DNA of 42,158 bases, from the NCBI GenBank assembly GCA_004292515.1, contig RDXB01000045.1, positions 1 to 42,158 on the forward strand, given 5' to 3'. The notes beneath the pieces were generated by a model. It did no database searches, was not told the origin of the DNA, and saw only the letters and a program-made list of their open reading frames with translations. This document shows, in pieces, positions 25,068-35,842 of this stretch. Position 1 is the stretch's first letter, and each line of letters opens with the position of its first letter. This DNA comes from Oscillatoriales cyanobacterium. Its GTDB lineage: Bacteria > Cyanobacteriota > Cyanobacteriia > CACIAM-69d. Position numbers and translations under genes: made by a program.

Positions 25068-26744
25068 ATGGGTCGATCGCGCCACTCGTTTTCCCCCCAA
25101 TTTGATCGCCTGCGCCATCTGCTCGCCCACTGTGGGCGCTGGGTGTTGTTAGGGGCGATCGGCTGTTCGATCGCCACCGCCGCCAGCGCCACCCTGCCCC
25201 GACTGCGGTTGCCCAGCTCCACCGGCCCCGGCGGCATCGACTCCGATCGCCTGCACCAACCCCCCTACAACCTCACGGGCCGCAAAATCGGCATCGGCCA
25301 AGTAGAAATTGGCCGCCCCGGCCGCTTTGGCCTCGACAAGTCCGTGGCCAACGCCAATAACTTCACGCCGGCGGGTTTGTTTGTCCTAGAAGCGCCCGTT
25401 AACTCCGATGAACATATCGATGGCCATGCCCACAGTGTGGCCGGCGTGATGATTGGTCGGCCCGGCAAGTTTGCCAGCGGCGTAGCGCCCAATGCGCGGC
25501 TCTATGCGGCCGCCACAGGGCCATCGGAGGGCAACGGCCAGGTGGCCGAGTGCATTGCTAGCCAGCAAGTCGCTCTGCAAAACAACGGGGATGTACGCGC
25601 CATTAACTACAGCTTTGGTGAACCCCTGAGCCAGGACGATCGCCTCAGTGCCACCCTGGACGGCAACTCCCTGCTGACCCTGTGCGTGGACTGGTCAGCC
25701 CGCACCCATGAAGTGCTGTATCTGATTGCTGGGAACCAAGGTGGCGGGGGAATTTCGATTCCAACTGATACCTTCAATGGCATCAATGTGGCCTTCACCC
25801 GTCGGTTCAAAGGACTGTTCTCGAAGTTGGATTTTGCCAACCTGGGGAATGTGGTCACGGGTGTGGGGCGGCATTTGGTCGGTGTGGAAAGCAATGCGGG
25901 TCTGCGCCGCTCGATCGGGCTGGTGGCTCCGGGGTCTGATGTGGCGCTCTATGAGCTGGGTGGTCAAATCAGCTATGCCAGCGGTACTAGCTTTGCCACG
26001 CCCCATGTGACGGCGGCGGTGGCTCTGCTGCAAGAGTGGGGCGATCGACAACTGGCCGCCCAGCAACCGCACTGGACGAAGGATGCCCGCCGCCACCAAG
26101 TGATGAAAGCGGTGTTAATGAACGCTGCGGACAAGGTACAGGATGCGGGCGATGGCAAACGGCTGGGGATGACGCGGGATGTGTGGCGCGAAGATGAGAA
26201 AACTTGGCTAGATTCCGATGCCCTCAGCGATCCGACGATTCCGCTGGATGAGCAAATCGGGGCGGGCCAACTGAATGCCTACCGGGCCTATCAACAGTTT
26301 GCACCGGGTCAATGGCGGCCGGATGAGGCTGTGCCCTTGGTGGGTTGGGCGTTTCAATCCTTGACTCTGAAAGATGACCAACCGGCGTTTCACGACTACC
26401 CGATCGCCCAACCGCTGCAAGGGGGAAGCTTTGCGGCCCTGACCCTGGCTTGGAGCCGCCATGTGGACTTGCTCGATCGCAATAACAATGGCAAGTTCGA
26501 TCGGGGTGAGGGTTTTGTGAGCAAAGGTCTGAGTGATTTTGATCTGTACCTAATCCCGGAAGGGGAAACCGTGGCCACCACAACCAACCCCTGCCGATCA
26601 ATTAGCTCTGTGGACAGCGTGGAACATGTATTTTGCGAAGTGCCCAAAACGGGTCGCTACCGGGTGCGGGTGGCTTTGAAAGAAACAGCCGTGGACCAGA
26701 GCGATGAGTATGCCCTGGCTTGGTGGACTGTGGGAGCCAGATAG
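25068..26744 (+). CDS. Secreted subtilisin-like (S8) peptidase with Glu at the Asp position
   Basis: The 558-residue protein starts with a signal peptide (WVLLGAIGCSIATAASA, cleavage near residue 41). The catalytic domain shows His in GHAHSVAGVMIG (about 120), the oxyanion Asn in LIAGNQGGGG and Ser in ASGTSFATPHVTAAVALLQEW (about 311). Where S8 enzymes usually have DTG or DSG, this one has GIGQVEIGRPG, so Glu seems to replace the catalytic Asp. A C-terminal domain includes DRNNNGKFDRGE, a good EF-hand-type calcium loop, and ends in a beta-rich module. It is probably periplasmic or extracellular. A small membrane-protein gene starts on the base after its stop, suggesting translational coupling. 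Confidence 0.87.
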   Translation: MGRSRHSFSPQFDRLRHLLAHCGRWVLLGAIGCSIATAASATLPRLRLPSSTGPGGIDSDRLHQPPYNLTGRKIGIGQVEIGRPGRFGLDKSVANANNFTPAGLFVLEAPVNSDEHIDGHAHSVAGVMIGRPGKFASGVAPNARLYAAATGPSEGNGQVAECIASQQVALQNNGDVRAINYSFGEPLSQDDRLSATLDGNSLLTLCVDWSARTHEVLYLIAGNQGGGGISIPTDTFNGINVAFTRRFKGLFSKLDFANLGNVVTGVGRHLVGVESNAGLRRSIGLVAPGSDVALYELGGQISYASGTSFATPHVTAAVALLQEWGDRQLAAQQPHWTKDARRHQVMKAVLMNAADKVQDAGDGKRLGMTRDVWREDEKTWLDSDALSDPTIPLDEQIGAGQLNAYRAYQQFAPGQWRPDEAVPLVGWAFQSLTLKDDQPAFHDYPIAQPLQGGSFAALTLAWSRHVDLLDRNNNGKFDRGEGFVSKGLSDFDLYLIPEGETVATTTNPCRSISSVDSVEHVFCEVPKTGRYRVRVALKETAVDQSDEYALAWWTVGAR

Positions 26745-27149
26745 ATGCAACCGCCACCCGAGGATCTGCCGTCCCTGGGGGATCAGACTCAGTTGGGGGT
26801 GCGCGATCGGGATCTTGACCCGATCGGCTCCCGGCTGCGGCTCTATCTCTACTACGCACCGATCGTCGGTTGGTTGCCGGCCCTGCTGGCCTTGAGGCGA
26901 TCGCCCTCGTTGGACGATCGGGAATTTGTGGCGGCCAAGCGATCGGTGCAGTTGGCGATCGGCTGGGCGATCGGGTTGGCGGTGGGCAGCACGGTGGGCG
27001 AGCAATTACCCGATCCGACCCTGACCTTTCTGCTGTTGCAGAGCGCCTGGACGAGCACCTATTGCCTGATTTGTGTGGGGTTGATGGTGTCGGTGTGGCG
27101 GCGACGCTCCTGGGCGATCGGGCCAAGGCGTGGGCGATCAAATCAGTGA
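26745..27149 (+). CDS. Small multi-helix membrane protein coupled to the S8 peptidase gene
   Basis: The 134-residue protein has a polar N-terminus (about 30 residues) and three hydrophobic segments: LYLYYAPIVGWLPALLAL (about 33-50), VQLAIGWAIGLAVGSTVG (about 67-85) and TFLLLQSAWTSTYCLICVGLMVSVW (about 93-118), then a basic tail. The ATG follows the peptidase stop without any gap, so the two are almost certainly on one transcript. The layout resembles the small DUF4870-like membrane proteins, but I cannot assign it with confidence. It could anchor or assist its neighbour; that is inference. Confidence 0.65.
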   Translation: MQPPPEDLPSLGDQTQLGVRDRDLDPIGSRLRLYLYYAPIVGWLPALLALRRSPSLDDREFVAAKRSVQLAIGWAIGLAVGSTVGEQLPDPTLTFLLLQSAWTSTYCLICVGLMVSVWRRRSWAIGPRRGRSNQ

Positions 27150-27438: not shown

Positions 27439-29832
27439 ATGGCTCAACTGGACAGCACTCAGATCGCAGCTTGTCAGAATCTACAGGAATCCGTCGAAGC
27501 AATTGTGAGTCTGGTTGAGCAGGAGCCTACCCTCAGGAATCAAGATATTACATCGGTCAATACTTCTCTGCGCAAGGCGATCGCTCCCACTTTTGAAGTC
27601 GCCTTTGTGGGTGCTTTCAGCGCTGGTAAATCGATGTTGATTAATGCCTTGCTGGGTCGAGAGTTGCTCTACAGCGCCGAAGGTCACGCCACGGGTATTG
27701 AGTGCTATATCGCCTACGCGCCGAGCGATCGCGAACGAGTCGTCTTGACCTTTGCCAGCGCGGCTGAAATCCATGAAGAAGTGCAGGTTTTGTTAGAACG
27801 ATTGGGGGTTTCCTCGGTGATCGATTTAAACCGTGAAGAAACCGTTTCCACGATTTTGACTGCCTGCGAAAAGATGGTTGAAAAAGAAGGTGGTGAATCC
27901 AAGTCGGAGCGGGCGAAACAAGCCAAAGCACTGAAATTGCTCATTGAAGGATGGTGGGCCAATCGCGATCGGATTCATCCCACCCTCAATCAAACCTACT
28001 CGATGGAGCAATTTAACTTCACCAACCTCAAAGATGCTGCGGCCTATGCCCGACGGGGTAGCAACAGCGCCGTGCTCAAGCGAGTGGAATATTACTGCTG
28101 CCATCCCTTGTTAGAAGATGGCAATGTGCTAGTGGATTTGCCAGGGATTGATGCCCCTGTGAAGAAAGATGCCGCCCTCACCTACAACAAAATTGCCAAT
28201 GAGGATACCTCTGCGGTGGTGGCAGTCTTGAAACCAGCGGCCGCAGGTGACATGACCAAAGAAGAAACCGAACTCCTAGAAGCTATGCGGAGTAATTCGG
28301 GGATTCGCGATCGGGTCTTTTTTGTTTTTAATCGAATTGATGAAACCTGGTACAACGTGCAGTTGCGGCAGCGGCTAGAGTCGCTAATTGCTAGTCAGTT
28401 CCGCGATGGTCAACGACTCTACAAAACCAGTGGCTTGCTGGGGTTTTATGGTAGCCAGTTGCGAGATACAAATCTGGGCGATCGCTTTGGGCTAGATAGC
28501 ATTTTTGCTAGCAGTGTCAAAGGATCAGAAATTGCCGAGGACACACCACAGTTTGTCTACGAGTTTAACCGCTACTGTTCCAGTTCCAGCAAGCTGCCGG
28601 CCAGTCGGTTTCGGATTTCGGTGAACAACTACGAAAGCCAAAATGAAAACTATGTTCGGATTTTGAGTGAATATGGGTCGCCGCTGGTCAATCAGCTCAT
28701 TCATGACAGTGGAATTGAATCCTTTCGGGAAGGAATTACTCGTTACCTAACGGAAGAGAAACGCCCTCAGCTTTTCTCAACTTTGGCCAATGATTTACAG
28801 CCGATTTGTTTGGCCTTGCGTCGTTTGTATGGCGATCGCTATCGAGAGCTAGACAGCCAACCCACGGAGCTAGAGGGAATTAAAAGCAATCGGCTCGATC
28901 GACTGAACACAGACCTGAAACGATTAGCCGAGAGTTTTGCCAATCATCTCAAGCAAGAAGTCAACGAAATTGTCACTAATCAATGTGTCAGTTTTGAGGA
29001 TGACTTTCGGAATCTGCAAGTGCGGATGCAAGGCCGAATGGGTGAATTGCTCAATGGTTTTTCGGTGAAGCAGGCCTATCAACGGGCGACCTTGGCGCAC
29101 CCACGTAATTCTACTGCGCCGTTGTTGGCGATCTTGGTTGAGGCGTTTTATTACCTGGCTAACGAGCTAGAAGAAGTACTGACCACGGAAATTGAGCGGG
29201 TGATTCGGCGGCTATTTTCGCTGTTGATGGATCGGATTCGCCACCAGGATTACTATCGGGAACTCTGCCGTTTGGTGGGAGATGATGCGGGGCTAGAAGA
29301 ACGATTGCAGGCGATCGAGCAATCGGTACAGTTGGCCCTGCGCAGTGAAGCCAGTACCGAGTGCGATCGCTATGTGCGCGAAAGTCCCGATTTCTATCAA
29401 GAAGGAACCGCCTCGATCTATCAATTTCGGGAAGTGTTGCGCCAAACTTCTGTGGGCTATGACTTTATGCCCATGGTGGAAGCAGAACCTGCCATTCGCC
29501 AATTACTAGAACTCGATTTCTCGCCCAAGGTGAAACGCACAGTCACTAGCACCTTTCGCCAGGCTGTCAGTCAAACCCTGAAGTCGCAATTGTTGCCTGT
29601 GGCGGGGGAGTACGAAGAGGTGATTTTGCAGCAATATACGATCGCACGAAATCATTTGGAGAAAACGATCGAGAAGGAAGCGCAAGAACAATTGCTGCAA
29701 CTGGCAGAGGAACAAGCCGAATTGCAAGCCAAAATCACGACTTACAATCAATCGGTTGAGGCGATCGACGCTTGTTTACAATCGATGGGGTGCGATCGCT
29801 ATCAACTCCCGATCGTGGAAGGCGCAATCTAA
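27439..29832 (+). CDS. Dynamin-like GTPase
   Basis: The 797-residue protein belongs to the bacterial dynamin family, which remodels or tethers membranes and in some bacteria takes part in phage defence or envelope stress. G1 is VAFVGAFSAGKSMLIN (residues about 54-69), G3 is VDLPGID (about 233) and G4 is FNRID (about 298). Long helical regions follow; a moderately hydrophobic stretch (APLLAILVEAFYYLANEL, about 555) could be the membrane-contacting tip. The C-terminus is a coiled coil (HLEKTIEKEAQEQLLQLAEEQAELQAKITTYNQ). Four KGK-type genes and an HNH gene follow on the same strand. HIP1 sites occur throughout, as in neighbouring native genes. Confidence 0.9.
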   Translation: MAQLDSTQIAACQNLQESVEAIVSLVEQEPTLRNQDITSVNTSLRKAIAPTFEVAFVGAFSAGKSMLINALLGRELLYSAEGHATGIECYIAYAPSDRERVVLTFASAAEIHEEVQVLLERLGVSSVIDLNREETVSTILTACEKMVEKEGGESKSERAKQAKALKLLIEGWWANRDRIHPTLNQTYSMEQFNFTNLKDAAAYARRGSNSAVLKRVEYYCCHPLLEDGNVLVDLPGIDAPVKKDAALTYNKIANEDTSAVVAVLKPAAAGDMTKEETELLEAMRSNSGIRDRVFFVFNRIDETWYNVQLRQRLESLIASQFRDGQRLYKTSGLLGFYGSQLRDTNLGDRFGLDSIFASSVKGSEIAEDTPQFVYEFNRYCSSSSKLPASRFRISVNNYESQNENYVRILSEYGSPLVNQLIHDSGIESFREGITRYLTEEKRPQLFSTLANDLQPICLALRRLYGDRYRELDSQPTELEGIKSNRLDRLNTDLKRLAESFANHLKQEVNEIVTNQCVSFEDDFRNLQVRMQGRMGELLNGFSVKQAYQRATLAHPRNSTAPLLAILVEAFYYLANELEEVLTTEIERVIRRLFSLLMDRIRHQDYYRELCRLVGDDAGLEERLQAIEQSVQLALRSEASTECDRYVRESPDFYQEGTASIYQFREVLRQTSVGYDFMPMVEAEPAIRQLLELDFSPKVKRTVTSTFRQAVSQTLKSQLLPVAGEYEEVILQQYTIARNHLEKTIEKEAQEQLLQLAEEQAELQAKITTYNQSVEAIDACLQSMGCDRYQLPIVEGAI

Positions 29833-29854
29833 AATGACCCTGAATTTAGGGCAG

Positions 29855-29874
29855 CAAGGGGCTTAAGCCCCTTG
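29855..29874 (+). repeat. 20-bp palindrome copy between the GTPase and first KGK gene
   Basis: A perfect CAAGGGGCTTAAGCCCCTTG preceded by GGGCAG and followed by TTATAACCACTTG, the same orientation as copies A-C but with short flanks. It lies in the 86-base gap between the two genes. Confidence 0.85.
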
Positions 29875-29918
29875 TTATAACCACTTGCTATAAACCCTCG
29901 CGATTAGGATTTTGACTC

Positions 29919-30245
29919 ATGACTGAGCCTCTAATTTATCGGCTAGATGCAGATGATGTGATTCGCTCCGATGATGGTGATTTACCTTTTGTAGAAGTGC
30001 CTATTTGCTTAGTCAGTCAGATGACTGCTAGCTTGGAGGAAGCCTATGATGAGGAGCAGGAGCAAGCGGCTTTTGCTGATGGGTTTCCTTGTCGTGTTTT
30101 GCGTCCCGGACAAAAACAATGGCTCTCTGGCAAGGTACGTTTTTTCTTAGAGTTTGAGCTTGATCCTGATCAAGTCGATGAATCTGTGAGTGCTGAAACT
30201 CCCGATTCATCCCTAGATCAACTCCGTAAACTCGCTGGCGAATAA
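29919..30245 (+). CDS. KGK-family small protein 1
   Basis: The 108-residue acidic protein is the first of four tandem paralogues. It has the shared N-terminal LDADDVI element, the core FPCRVLRPGQKQWLSGKVRFFLEFELDPD (about 58-88) and the C-terminal SSLDQLRKLAGE. The W..GKVR..LEF.pD core fits the cyanobacterial KGK family, which has no assigned function. Of the four, only this one keeps Lys in the GK-V-R position. It starts 86 bases after the GTPase gene. The region is AT-richer than the flanking genes and lacks HIP1 octamers. Confidence 0.7.
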   Translation: MTEPLIYRLDADDVIRSDDGDLPFVEVPICLVSQMTASLEEAYDEEQEQAAFADGFPCRVLRPGQKQWLSGKVRFFLEFELDPDQVDESVSAETPDSSLDQLRKLAGE

Positions 30246-30347
30246 CTCAGTGCAATTCTAGGCTTGAGCAGCATTTCATAATGAAAACTGATACTACAAT
30301 GATAGTGCTGACTTACAGAAAGCCAACTCAAGGAGTTTTCAAAATCT

Positions 30348-30650
30348 ATGGCTAATTCTGAAATGCGCGAACTGCTTCCTGATGAAGTGATCAATATCAA
30401 GCCTGGTTATTATATTCAACATCCCACTTGTCAAATCCAAGAATTGATTCAGCTCTTTAGATCAAAATCTGCTCATGAAATCCAGGCCCTTTTCTCAGAA
30501 GAGGGTCTGGAGTGCCAAGCATTACAGTTTGGTGCAAGGAGCTGGGAAGCAGGGCGCTTGAAGATTGTTCTTCAGTTTGAACCAGATTCATCTAATTCTG
30601 ACGATTCAGAATCAACATTGGATGAAATTCGTCGCTTGGCAGGAAGTTAA
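30348..30650 (+). CDS. KGK-family small protein 2
   Basis: The 100-residue protein has the shared plan: LLPDEVINI near the N-terminus, EEGLECQALQFGARSWEAGRLKIVLQFEPD in the core (about 51-80), an acidic serine-rich linker (SSNSDDSES) and the C-terminal TLDEIRRLAGS. AAGGAG lies about 14 bases before the ATG. It follows paralogue 1 after about 100 bases and precedes paralogue 3 by 36 bases. No catalytic residues are evident; a binding or adaptor role is possible. Confidence 0.7.
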   Translation: MANSEMRELLPDEVINIKPGYYIQHPTCQIQELIQLFRSKSAHEIQALFSEEGLECQALQFGARSWEAGRLKIVLQFEPDSSNSDDSESTLDEIRRLAGS

Positions 30651-30686
30651 CTGCTGTAGTAGTTTCATGTGAAGATACAGAAAATT

Positions 30687-31010
30687 ATGGATCTATCAAA
30701 AATGTACCAAATTTTACCTAATGAAGTAGTGACGCTAGAAGACCCTGTTTACGATCTCAATGGCCCAACCAACCGAATCTCAGAAATACAGGCAGTTATT
30801 GAGAATCATCTTGGCAGGAATTTGAATGCTTTGACCTCGGAAGAGGGAGTCAGGTGTGAAGCATTGTTTCTGGGTGTCCCTGAGTGGCAGCCAGGCCGAT
30901 TGCGATTGATGTTATTGTTTGAGCCAGATGAACCAGTAGAAGAAGAGTTGTCACCAAATGATGAGCTGGATAAATCTCTCAGTGAACTTCAGCGTTTGGC
31001 AAACAGTTAA
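30687..31010 (+). CDS. KGK-family small protein 3
   Basis: The 107-residue protein starts MDLSKMYQILPNEVVTLEDP. The core is EEGVRCEALFLGVPEWQPGRLRLMLLFEPDEP (about 57-88), followed by an acidic linker and SLSELQRLANS. An in-frame GTG at 30669 would add six residues, but the start at 30687 keeps the same distance to the L-P-x-E-V element as in the other paralogues. The sequence is strongly diverged from its neighbours, so the duplication is not recent. Confidence 0.68.
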   Translation: MDLSKMYQILPNEVVTLEDPVYDLNGPTNRISEIQAVIENHLGRNLNALTSEEGVRCEALFLGVPEWQPGRLRLMLLFEPDEPVEEELSPNDELDKSLSELQRLANS

Positions 31011-31043
31011 CTCAACAATGTAAAAGTAATTTCGGTGACGGCT

Positions 31044-31436
31044 ATGGAAAAAAGATTCTTGCCTCTAGAACCAGAAGAGGTGATTTCAGCAAATCACAAA
31101 CACAATATTGCTGTACGCCACAATACTTGCACAGTTTCAGAATTTATACTGGGTCTCTCCAGATATCTAAAGGCTTATTCTGATAGCAGCCGTGATGTTC
31201 CTTTCTATTGGGATGATAATCGGCAACAATGGTTCACTGATGAAGGTGTCGAGGGGCACGCTTTGCGATATGGAGAAAAGGGGTGGCAGTCAGGGCGGTT
31301 GAGATTGTCGATCGAGTTTTATCCCGATGAACCAGAGCCAGAACCAGAAGCGGCGGAATTGCCCTTGCTTGAAGCCAGCATTGAACCGGCTGATTCTCCG
31401 TTAGATGAAATTCGGCGATTGGCGGAGGAATCGTAA
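31044..31436 (+). CDS. KGK-family small protein 4 (longest)
   Basis: The 130-residue protein has LEPEEVISANHK at the start, an insert of about 20 residues (SDSSRDVPFYWDDNRQQWF) before the core DEGVEGHALRYGEKGWQSGRLRLSIEFYPDEPEPEP, an extended acidic linker and SPLDEIRRLAEES at the end. The GW..GRLR..IEFYPDEP core is the clearest family signature of the four. A GTG at 31035 is an alternative start. Its stop shares one base with the start of the HNH gene (TAATG), which suggests coupled translation. Confidence 0.72.
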   Translation: MEKRFLPLEPEEVISANHKHNIAVRHNTCTVSEFILGLSRYLKAYSDSSRDVPFYWDDNRQQWFTDEGVEGHALRYGEKGWQSGRLRLSIEFYPDEPEPEPEAAELPLLEASIEPADSPLDEIRRLAEES

Positions 31437-31672
31437 TGGCAAAAACGCCTCGGATTAAAATTGATCCAGCCGTTCGACAATATGTGCTTGATCGCGACAA
31501 TCACCAATGCCAAAGTTGTGGCAGCCGCGATCGCCTAGAAATTGACCACATCAAATCCCTCGCCGCTGGCGGATCAAACGACATCAGTAATTTGCAGACC
31601 CTTTGCCGCAGTTGTAATGCTCGCAAGCGCGATCGCCTCGACTTGCGGTTCGATCGCCGCTTCAATTGGTGA
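31436..31672 (+). CDS. Small HNH endonuclease-like protein
   Basis: The 78-residue protein is a minimal McrA-type HNH domain. It has CQSC and CRSC zinc-binding pairs framing the LEIDHIKSLAAGGSNDISNLQTLC core, with the expected DH and N positions, and a basic C-terminus (NARKRDRLDLRFDRRFNW). Such proteins nick or cut DNA. GGAGG precedes the ATG by seven bases, and the start overlaps the stop of KGK paralogue 4. Unlike the KGK genes, it contains GCGATCGC sites. Whether it works with the KGK proteins or is a neighbour by chance cannot be told from sequence. Confidence 0.85.
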   Translation: MAKTPRIKIDPAVRQYVLDRDNHQCQSCGSRDRLEIDHIKSLAAGGSNDISNLQTLCRSCNARKRDRLDLRFDRRFNW

Positions 31673-34735: not shown

Positions 34736-35842
34736 TTAGAAAGAGATGATCAGATACTGATCGCTGAATTTTGCCCCCTTCACCGATCGCCCGGCCAAGG
34801 CGGGGGGCAAGAAGATATTGCGGCGCTGCTCGCCTGCCTCGATCGTCACCTCCGGCCCCGATTGGGTGAGGTGAATTTGTCCCTTGGTGAATCCCGGCAA
34901 GAACAGCTTCACCTGTTGGGCTGCCAGGTCGATGGTGATCGGGCGGGGAGCCTGCTGGGCCAAGGTGGCAAAATCTGGCATCAACGGGATCAGGGCATCC
35001 CAATTTGGGAGGGTAGGTTGCTCAGGGATTTCCGTCACAGTCAGGGGATTGAAATCAGCATCGATCGCCCCTGGATTGCGCAATCGATTCAAAAACAAAC
35101 CACCGACGGTCAGCCCCGCCTGTTGTGCGCTCCCCCAAAGGTATTGAGCCAGGGCCTGCGAAACCGCATCGCCGTTGGCCACCAGCCAGCCCGCCACCCG
35201 GCGCGGATCGGCCAACACATTCCGCCCCCGATCGAGCAAGTCCTGAAACTCACCCAAGGGGCCTTCCCACGGAGCGCTCGACATACCGCCACTGCTCAAC
35301 ACTGCCATAGAAATCGGCTGCACAAAGGGCGAAATCGCCTTGGCAAAGTCCGACTCGGTCACCACTTTTTGGAACCGGCGCACATACCAGGACAAGACTT
35401 CGGGAGCCGCCATGGTGAGCAGTGTTGCCCGATCGCTGTTGCCGTCATAGACGATCGCGTCGTAATTGCCCAAAGCTTCGTATTGCCGCAGGGCATTCAA
35501 CGCCAGCGCCCGATCCATCCCCGGCAACACGGCCAGCTCTTCGCCGTAAACATTGCGGAAAAAGGGTTGGCGCAAATATTCCGACTCTAGGCGCTTAATT
35601 TCATCCCAACCACGCTCCAGCAGGGTGGTGGCGGCCGGTTGCACAGCCCAGAGGTTGGAGCTGATCTCCTGGGGATCTGAGCCGATCGCCCCCGTCCCCA
35701 ACATCATGCCCAGGGTGGGCCCAGCATCTTGCCCAAACAGCAGCACCCGCTTGCCTTGGCTGGCCAGGGCCATCGCCGCCGCGATCGCCAGGGTCGATCG
35801 CCCCGATCCCCCTTTTCCCAACAGCGTCAGCGTGAAAGCCAC
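34736..35842 (-). CDS. Get3/ArsA-family ATPase (Get3d-like)
   Basis: The 368-residue protein is a SIMIBI ATPase. Its P-loop LLGKGGSGRSTLA (about 7-19) is the deviant Walker A with Arg instead of the second Lys. The switch region GQDAGPTLGMML follows. The C-terminal 80 residues (LPGFTKGQIHLTQSGPEVTIEAGEQRRNIFLP) form an alpha-crystallin-like beta module, as described for the photosynthetic Get3d branch. It starts with GTG (ending at 35842). It is divergent from chlG, an arrangement I associate with cyanobacteria. Arsenite transport is not expected; a role in targeting or cofactor handling is possible. Confidence 0.83.
   Translation of the reverse strand: MAFTLTLLGKGGSGRSTLAIAAAMALASQGKRVLLFGQDAGPTLGMMLGTGAIGSDPQEISSNLWAVQPAATTLLERGWDEIKRLESEYLRQPFFRNVYGEELAVLPGMDRALALNALRQYEALGNYDAIVYDGNSDRATLLTMAAPEVLSWYVRRFQKVVTESDFAKAISPFVQPISMAVLSSGGMSSAPWEGPLGEFQDLLDRGRNVLADPRRVAGWLVANGDAVSQALAQYLWGSAQQAGLTVGGLFLNRLRNPGAIDADFNPLTVTEIPEQPTLPNWDALIPLMPDFATLAQQAPRPITIDLAAQQVKLFLPGFTKGQIHLTQSGPEVTIEAGEQRRNIFLPPALAGRSVKGAKFSDQYLIISF

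What the first reader, a model, noticed from the sequence alone, without database searches (positions are those of the whole stretch)
27439..31672. Dynamin-like GTPase, four tandem KGK paralogues and an HNH nuclease as one candidate system
On one strand a 797-residue dynamin-like GTPase is followed by four small paralogues and an HNH nuclease gene. The gaps shrink from 86 and about 100 bases to 30-40 bases, and the last pair shares one base. Four diverged copies kept side by side suggest subunits or specificity variants. Bacterial dynamins and HNH nucleases both occur in phage-defence and membrane-stress contexts, so the set could be a defence or membrane-remodelling module. The function is inference.
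Basis: partly seen in the sequence, partly recalled or inferred. Interest (0 to 1): 0.78.

Follow-up and report, generated by a model that had tools for sequence, protein, structure and literature searches.

The report
Cyanobacterial dynamin–KGK–HNH nuclease gene cassette
Across cyanobacteria, a gene for a membrane-reshaping dynamin is followed by one to five copies of a small puzzling protein and then by a small DNA-cutting enzyme; the dynamin/small-protein link was known, but the enzyme is a third partner that seems not to have been noted, and it points to an unexpected link between membrane remodelling and DNA cutting.

Summary
In detail: a 797-aa dynamin-like GTPase (DLP), four diverged KGK genes and a 78-aa HNH nuclease gene lie on one strand, and the last pair shares one base. 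The GTPase is an orthologue of SynDLP (Synechocystis Slr0869), and the DLP–KGK neighbourhood is already published ('KGK clade'). New here: the HNH gene is a true third partner. In 386 cyanobacterial genomes this HNH occurs once per genome, in 79 of the 90 genomes with the DLP and in 8 of the other 296. In 56 genomes (36 genera, 15 families) it lies downstream on the DLP strand. No other gene family near the DLP exceeds 10 genomes. Every pair of the three is found without the third. The nuclease's catalytic and zinc residues are almost invariant; KGK proteins evolve fast. The DLP tree follows taxonomy, and the DLP was not found on plasmids or phages, so the cassette looks like an old, vertically inherited operon rather than a mobile defence island. 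In Synechocystis slr0868–0871 are derepressed together in a lexA mutant (published). Most likely mechanism (inferred): KGK adaptors couple a membrane-assembled dynamin to the nuclease. An anti-phage role is possible but unsupported.

The parts
27439..29832 (+). Dynamin-like GTPase, orthologue of SynDLP/Slr0869 (KGK clade); P-loop GAFSAGKS at residue 58, extended motif LINALL at 67, DLPG at 233, NRID at 298, HPRN loop at 554, BSE cysteines C12 and C779
   Evidence: phmmer to PDB 7zw6 E 1.1e-298 over residues 11-793; motif positions; Pfam
29919..30245 (+). KGK protein 1 (108 aa)
   Evidence: Pfam PF08872 2.6e-11; orthologue in two genomes of the genus, 74% identity
30348..30650 (+). KGK protein 2 (100 aa)
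   Evidence: Pfam PF08872 7.9e-10
30687..31010 (+). KGK protein 3 (107 aa from ATG 30687; 113 aa from GTG 30669)
   Evidence: Pfam PF08872 1.7e-8; start chosen from the alignment with close relatives
31044..31436 (+). KGK protein 4 (130 aa from ATG 31044; 133 aa from GTG 31035); AlphaFold2 model: alpha/beta core, low-confidence acidic linker, C-terminal helix
   Evidence: Pfam PF08872 6e-14; model mean pLDDT 84.9
31436..31672 (+). Stand-alone HNH nuclease (78 aa); start codon overlaps the KGK4 stop by one base; Cys4 zinc site and D37/H38/N52/N61/K64 kept
   Evidence: Pfam HNH 2.2e-15; residue conservation in 75 orthologues; cassette profile E 8e-40

Best explanation
This is one member of an old, vertically inherited, cyanobacteria-wide operon of three components: a SynDLP-type dynamin, zero to five fast-evolving KGK proteins and one conserved HNH nuclease. 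Shown here: gene order, same-strand close packing, single-copy co-occurrence, retention of nuclease residues and specificity of the neighbourhood. Inferred: the three proteins work together. The dynamin assembles on stressed thylakoid or cytoplasmic membrane. KGK proteins act as adaptors or regulators: a folded core plus a flexible acidic linker with a conserved C-terminal helix (SPLDDLRR) that bind the dynamin and the nuclease. They thereby place or restrain the HNH nuclease at the dynamin-coated membrane, where it cuts DNA (incoming, extruded or damaged). Expression is stress-linked and LexA-repressed in Synechocystis.
For: DLP orthology to SynDLP, which binds and fuses membranes in vitro (PMC10104851). 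Co-occurrence: DLP in 90, KGK in 93 and HNH in 87 of 386 genomes; DLP+HNH 79, all three 70. It also holds inside one family, where the genes come and go: 15 both, 3 DLP only, 1 HNH only, 19 neither, without the Microcystis-like genus. Order DLP-(KGK)n-HNH: of 90 DLP loci 44 have KGK and HNH, 12 HNH alone, 13 KGK alone, 21 neither; all cassette genes are on the DLP strand and downstream. Only DLP, HNH and KGK are conserved in these loci; the next cluster is in 10 genomes. KGK-HNH pairs persist away from the DLP in at least four families, DLP-HNH without any recognised KGK and DLP-KGK without HNH. HNH residues near-invariant; HNH dN 0.023 and DLP 0.038 against 0.16-0.48 for KGKs. DLP tree follows families. 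slr0868-0871 rise 6-16-fold together in a Synechocystis lexA mutant (PMC4759255).
Against: No physical interaction, co-transcript in this organism or nuclease assay is available. 21 of 90 DLP loci have neither gene beside them; in 23 of the 79 DLP+HNH genomes the HNH is not close to the DLP. Some genomes have DLP+HNH and no recognisable KGK, so KGK cannot be an obligate bridge everywhere. [quoted passage not shown] slr0870/slr0871 were not confirmed here to be KGK/HNH; PCC 6803 is not among the genomes found. No LexA-like box of the RGTACNNNDGTWCB type was found upstream of the 90 DLP genes.
Confidence: 0.45

Rival explanations
1. Anti-phage module: the dynamin senses or seals membrane damage during infection, fast-evolving KGK copies are recognition subunits, and the HNH cuts phage DNA at the entry site.
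For: Precedents: DynA of B. subtilis delays phage lysis (PMC8844932); SNIPE is a membrane-bound nuclease that cuts DNA during injection (PMC13190303). KGK copies are numerous, variable and fast-evolving. The nuclease keeps its catalytic residues.
Against: DLP tree follows taxonomy and most families are single clades; DLP not found on plasmids or phages; no curated defence model fits; flanking genes differ between lineages and none is shared widely; in this window the neighbours are rpe, a subtilase, a GH57 branching enzyme and a Get3-like ATPase. Defence genes in the flanks of the other loci were not scanned.
Confidence: 0.2
2. DLP and KGK form the functional unit (KGK regulates dynamin assembly); the HNH is an independent housekeeping nuclease that is merely inherited next to them.
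For: DLP-KGK without HNH occurs (13 of 90 loci); the published clade definition uses KGK only (PMC5827413); in 23 genomes the HNH is not close to the DLP.
Against: No other neighbour is kept like this. HNH co-occurs with DLP as tightly as KGK does (79 against 77 of 90). HNH sits behind the DLP even where KGK is absent, and beside KGK where the DLP is elsewhere. The K and H frames overlap in 16 of 44 KGK-HNH loci.
Confidence: 0.2
3. The small HNH protein no longer cuts DNA; it is a zinc-stabilised binding module that regulates the dynamin.
For: Only 78 aa with no added DNA-binding domain. HNH-like folds can be structural: DotN/IcmJ of a type IVB secretion system matches the cassette HNH profile.
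Against: D37, H38, N52, N61 and K64 are kept in 74-75 of 75 orthologues, as expected for a working HNH.
Confidence: 0.1
4. The association only reflects shared ancestry in large-genome cyanobacteria and carries no functional link.
For: Vertical inheritance and the sampling of many small-genome lineages inflate the phylum-wide co-occurrence statistic.
Against: Genes flanking the cassette did not stay together over the same span; co-occurrence holds within one family where the genes come and go.
Confidence: 0.05

Closest known systems
SynDLP / KGK clade of cyanobacterial dynamin-like proteins (Jilly et al. 2018, PMC5827413; 2023, PMC10104851; PDB 7zw6)
   Same: DLP orthologous over its full length, both BSE cysteines, HPRN loop, extended P-loop, KGK gene downstream
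   Different: Four KGK copies here; the HNH gene is not mentioned in the main text of PMC5827413; no paper held contains 'dynamin', 'HNH' and 'cyanobacteria' together
LeoA/LeoBC (Eleos) bacterial dynamin systems
   Same: Bacterial dynamin GTPase in a multi-gene operon; weak similarity in the N-terminal GTPase region (PADLOC LeoA E 2e-12, residues 9-73)
   Different: One dynamin, no Leo partner genes, different accompanying proteins; not a member
B. subtilis DynA (PMC8844932)
   Same: Bacterial dynamin acting in membrane surveillance and phage tolerance
   Different: No nuclease partner in the abstract; only weak similarity to the NCBIfam dynamin DynA model (33.8 bits, cut-off 1600)
SNIPE membrane-bound nuclease (PMC13190303)
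   Same: Idea of a nuclease acting at the membrane
   Different: Similarity is conceptual only; no sequence comparison was made
Stand-alone HNH nucleases and IscB-type HNH domains
   Same: HNH motif and residues; best PDB relatives 5h0m, an IscB (9k2z) and 4h9d
   Different: A distinct, highly conserved cyanobacterial family, one per genome, linked to DLP and KGK

Membership tests
KGK-clade cyanobacterial DLP (SynDLP) | Full-length sequence similarity to SynDLP | tested here: met
   phmmer E 1.1e-298, residues 11-793
KGK-clade cyanobacterial DLP (SynDLP) | Two BSE cysteines forming a disulfide in SynDLP (C777 and its partner) | tested here: met
   C12 and C779 align with the N-terminal and C-terminal cysteines of SynDLP; the bond itself was not tested
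KGK-clade cyanobacterial DLP (SynDLP) | HPRN stalk loop and extended P-loop GxxxxGKSxLINALL | tested here: met
   HPRN at 554, GAFSAGKS at 58 and LINALL at 67
KGK-clade cyanobacterial DLP (SynDLP) | KGK gene downstream | tested here: met
   Four KGK genes
KGK-clade cyanobacterial DLP (SynDLP) | Oligomerisation, GTPase and membrane activity | not testable with these tools
   Needs biochemistry
PF08872 KGK | Score above the curated cut-off of 25.6 bits | tested here: met
   44.4, 39.7, 35.3 and 52.9 bits
HNH endonuclease | Zinc cysteines and DH...N...N..K motif | tested here: met
   Near-invariant in 75 orthologues
HNH endonuclease | DNA cleavage | not testable with these tools
   Needs an assay
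Eleos (LeoA/LeoBC) defence system | Leo dynamin together with its Leo partner gene | tested here: not met
   One dynamin in the cassette, with only partial similarity to the LeoA and LeoBC models in the GTPase region; the other cassette genes are KGK and HNH
Anti-phage defence system in general | Carriage on mobile elements, patchy horizontal distribution | tested here: not met
Anti-phage defence system in general | Neighbouring defence genes (defence island) | not tested
   Only conservation of flanking genes was tested; they were not scanned for defence families

The most novel reading that the evidence does not exclude
A cyanobacteria-wide dynamin-nuclease module in which a membrane-assembled dynamin, through KGK adaptors, positions or releases an HNH nuclease at the membrane, so that DNA is judged by where it is (at a damaged or entered membrane) rather than by its sequence.
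Probability: 0.2. Interest if true: 0.85.

Novelty: new variant of a known kind. Interest (0 to 1): 0.6.

Why it matters
SynDLP is a cyanobacterial dynamin with a solved structure, yet its role in the cell is unknown and it appears not to be essential under standard growth. A conserved nuclease partner gives a concrete, testable lead: look at DNA as well as membranes, and under stress (salt, high light, phage, DNA uptake). It would also be an unusual link between a dynamin and a nuclease in bacteria.

Tried and rejected
KGK fold: Foldseek and VIA-align gave only weak SWIB/MDM2-like hits (best E 0.22, Z about 3); no claim is made, and a missing match does not show a new fold. KGK profile against PDB sequences: no match. 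Defence system by PADLOC: only generic hits. LexA box (RGTACNNNDGTWCB) upstream of the DLP in 90 genomes: none. KGK hidden in the DLP tail of genomes without KGK: none seen; those tails are acidic and lack the KGK motif. KGK fusions as a clue to function: the 441-492-aa proteins are KGK plus an acidic repeat tail next to a tilS-like gene, a separate KGK branch. One HNH upstream of a DLP (G195) looks like a group II intron-type protein, not the cassette HNH. Identifying Synechocystis PCC 6803 in the held genomes failed (closest 79%). Promoter and terminator scan: no more promoters than in shuffles.

Full report
OBSERVATION. The window (cyanobacterial, contig 78 of a 3.98-Mb draft genome) carries, on the + strand, a 797-aa dynamin-like GTPase (27439-29832), four KGK-domain genes and a 78-aa HNH gene (31436-31672). 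Gaps are 86, 102, 18, 24 and -1 bases with the longest starts; relatives suggest ATG starts at 30687 and 31044 for KGK3 and KGK4, which gives 36 and 33.

WHAT THE GTPASE IS. It matches SynDLP (Slr0869; PDB 7zw6) over residues 11-793 with E 1e-298 and keeps both BSE cysteines (C12, C779), the HPRN loop and the extended P-loop. It is a member of the published 'KGK clade' of cyanobacterial DLPs, in which a KGK gene typically lies downstream (PMC5827413; PMC10104851). That part is therefore known. The main text of PMC5827413 does not mention HNH or a nuclease; its supplement could not be read. No paper held contains dynamin, HNH and cyanobacteria together.

THE HNH IS A THIRD PARTNER. I built a profile from 18 cassette HNH proteins and searched 386 genomes drawn evenly from the phylum. 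It matches 87 genomes at E<=1e-22, once in each. The SynDLP-type DLP is in 90 and KGK in 93. DLP and HNH occur together in 79, DLP and KGK in 77, all three in 70. The Fisher p-value (4e-60) is inflated by shared ancestry, so I repeated the DLP/HNH comparison in one family where the genes come and go: 22 both, 7 DLP only, 2 HNH only, 19 neither; without the Microcystis-like genus 15, 3, 1, 19.

ORDER AND SPECIFICITY. I fetched the 90 DLP loci (and the window itself) and mapped them. After the DLP come: KGK(s) then HNH in 44 (one of them KGK-HNH-KGK), HNH alone in 12, KGK alone in 13, neither in 21. Every one is on the DLP strand and downstream; KGK copy number is 0 to 5. In 16 of 44 KGK-HNH loci the reading frames of KGK and HNH overlap, often by 4 bases (longest starts were used, so larger overlaps are uncertain). 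Clustering every gene in these loci, only DLP (90 genomes), HNH (56) and KGK (56) are conserved; the next cluster is in 10 genomes. The flanks change between lineages while the cassette stays.

EVERY PAIR OCCURS WITHOUT THE THIRD. KGK-HNH pairs sit away from the DLP in G306, G078, G131, G336 and Microcystis-like genomes. DLP-HNH occurs with no recognisable KGK in the genome (for example G002, G066, G207, G298). DLP-KGK occurs without HNH. Where the HNH has moved away it is mostly still closest to the HNH of its own relatives.

CONSTRAINT. HNH Cys25, Cys28, Asp37, His38, Asn52, Cys57, Cys60, Asn61 and Lys64 are kept in 74-75 of 75 orthologues. Between this genome and a congener, HNH dN is 0.023 and DLP 0.038, but the KGKs range over 0.16-0.48. 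KGK1 has a clear orthologue in the congener (74%); the others are shuffled and diverged, so the array appears to turn over by birth and loss. The KGK4 model (pLDDT 84.9) shows an alpha/beta core (residues 16-89), a low-confidence linker and a C-terminal helix at 122-132; S121, L123, D124 and R127 of that helix region are among the few columns kept in 90% or more of 91 KGKs. No confident structural relative was found.

INHERITANCE. The DLP tree (85 sequences) groups by family with the least possible number of changes, 20. The DLP was not found in 72,556 plasmid or 50,697 phage records. This is the pattern of an old core trait with losses, not of a mobile defence system.

REGULATION. In Synechocystis, slr0868, slr0869, slr0870 and slr0871 rise together 6- to 16-fold in a lexA mutant (PMC4759255), whose expression profile the authors liken to salt stress. 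This supports co-expression across the DLP and its downstream neighbours, though I could not confirm here which of slr0870/0871 is KGK or HNH. In the relative G014 the order is DLP-KGK-KGK-KGK-HNH.

MECHANISM. Shown: conserved three-part gene unit with a probably active nuclease and a membrane-active dynamin orthologue. Inferred: KGKs are adaptors or regulators between them, and the nuclease acts at the membrane. What DNA it cuts is unknown; foreign DNA entering, or DNA released under membrane stress, are the leading ideas. Defence is a rival, not the preferred reading; precedents are DynA (PMC8844932) and SNIPE (PMC13190303).

Noticed in passing
window 29850-29880 (between DLP and KGK1): An 18-base palindromic repeat AGGGGCTTAAGCCCCTTG lies between the DLP and KGK1; it occurs about 360 times in this genome (362 forward and 373 reverse matches with up to 1 mismatch, against 0 for the reversed control).
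   Followed up: partly
L177:3949-5427 and L178:4193-5518: KGK domain fused to a long acidic repeat tail (441-492 aa), between a cytochrome c biogenesis-like membrane protein gene and a tilS-like gene in two families; a separate KGK branch, not the cassette.
   Followed up: partly
L180:6564-7388 and L181:6618-7373: Longer KGK open frames behind the DLP (275 and 252 aa) that carry two KGK matches each, apparent tandem fusions of neighbouring KGK genes.
   Followed up: no
L173:4827-5769 and G385 locus L266: Broken DLP genes with KGK and HNH still nearby, or several stop codons in the DLP match, suggesting decay of the cassette in some lineages of family f7.
   Followed up: no
window 34736-35842 (-): Gene matching the NCBIfam model NosAFP (Get3/ArsA-fold putative tail-anchor ATPase) at E 5.9e-156.
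   Followed up: no
window 25068-26744 (+): Subtilase-family serine protease followed without a gap by a 134-aa ORF (26745-27149) with no family match.
   Followed up: no
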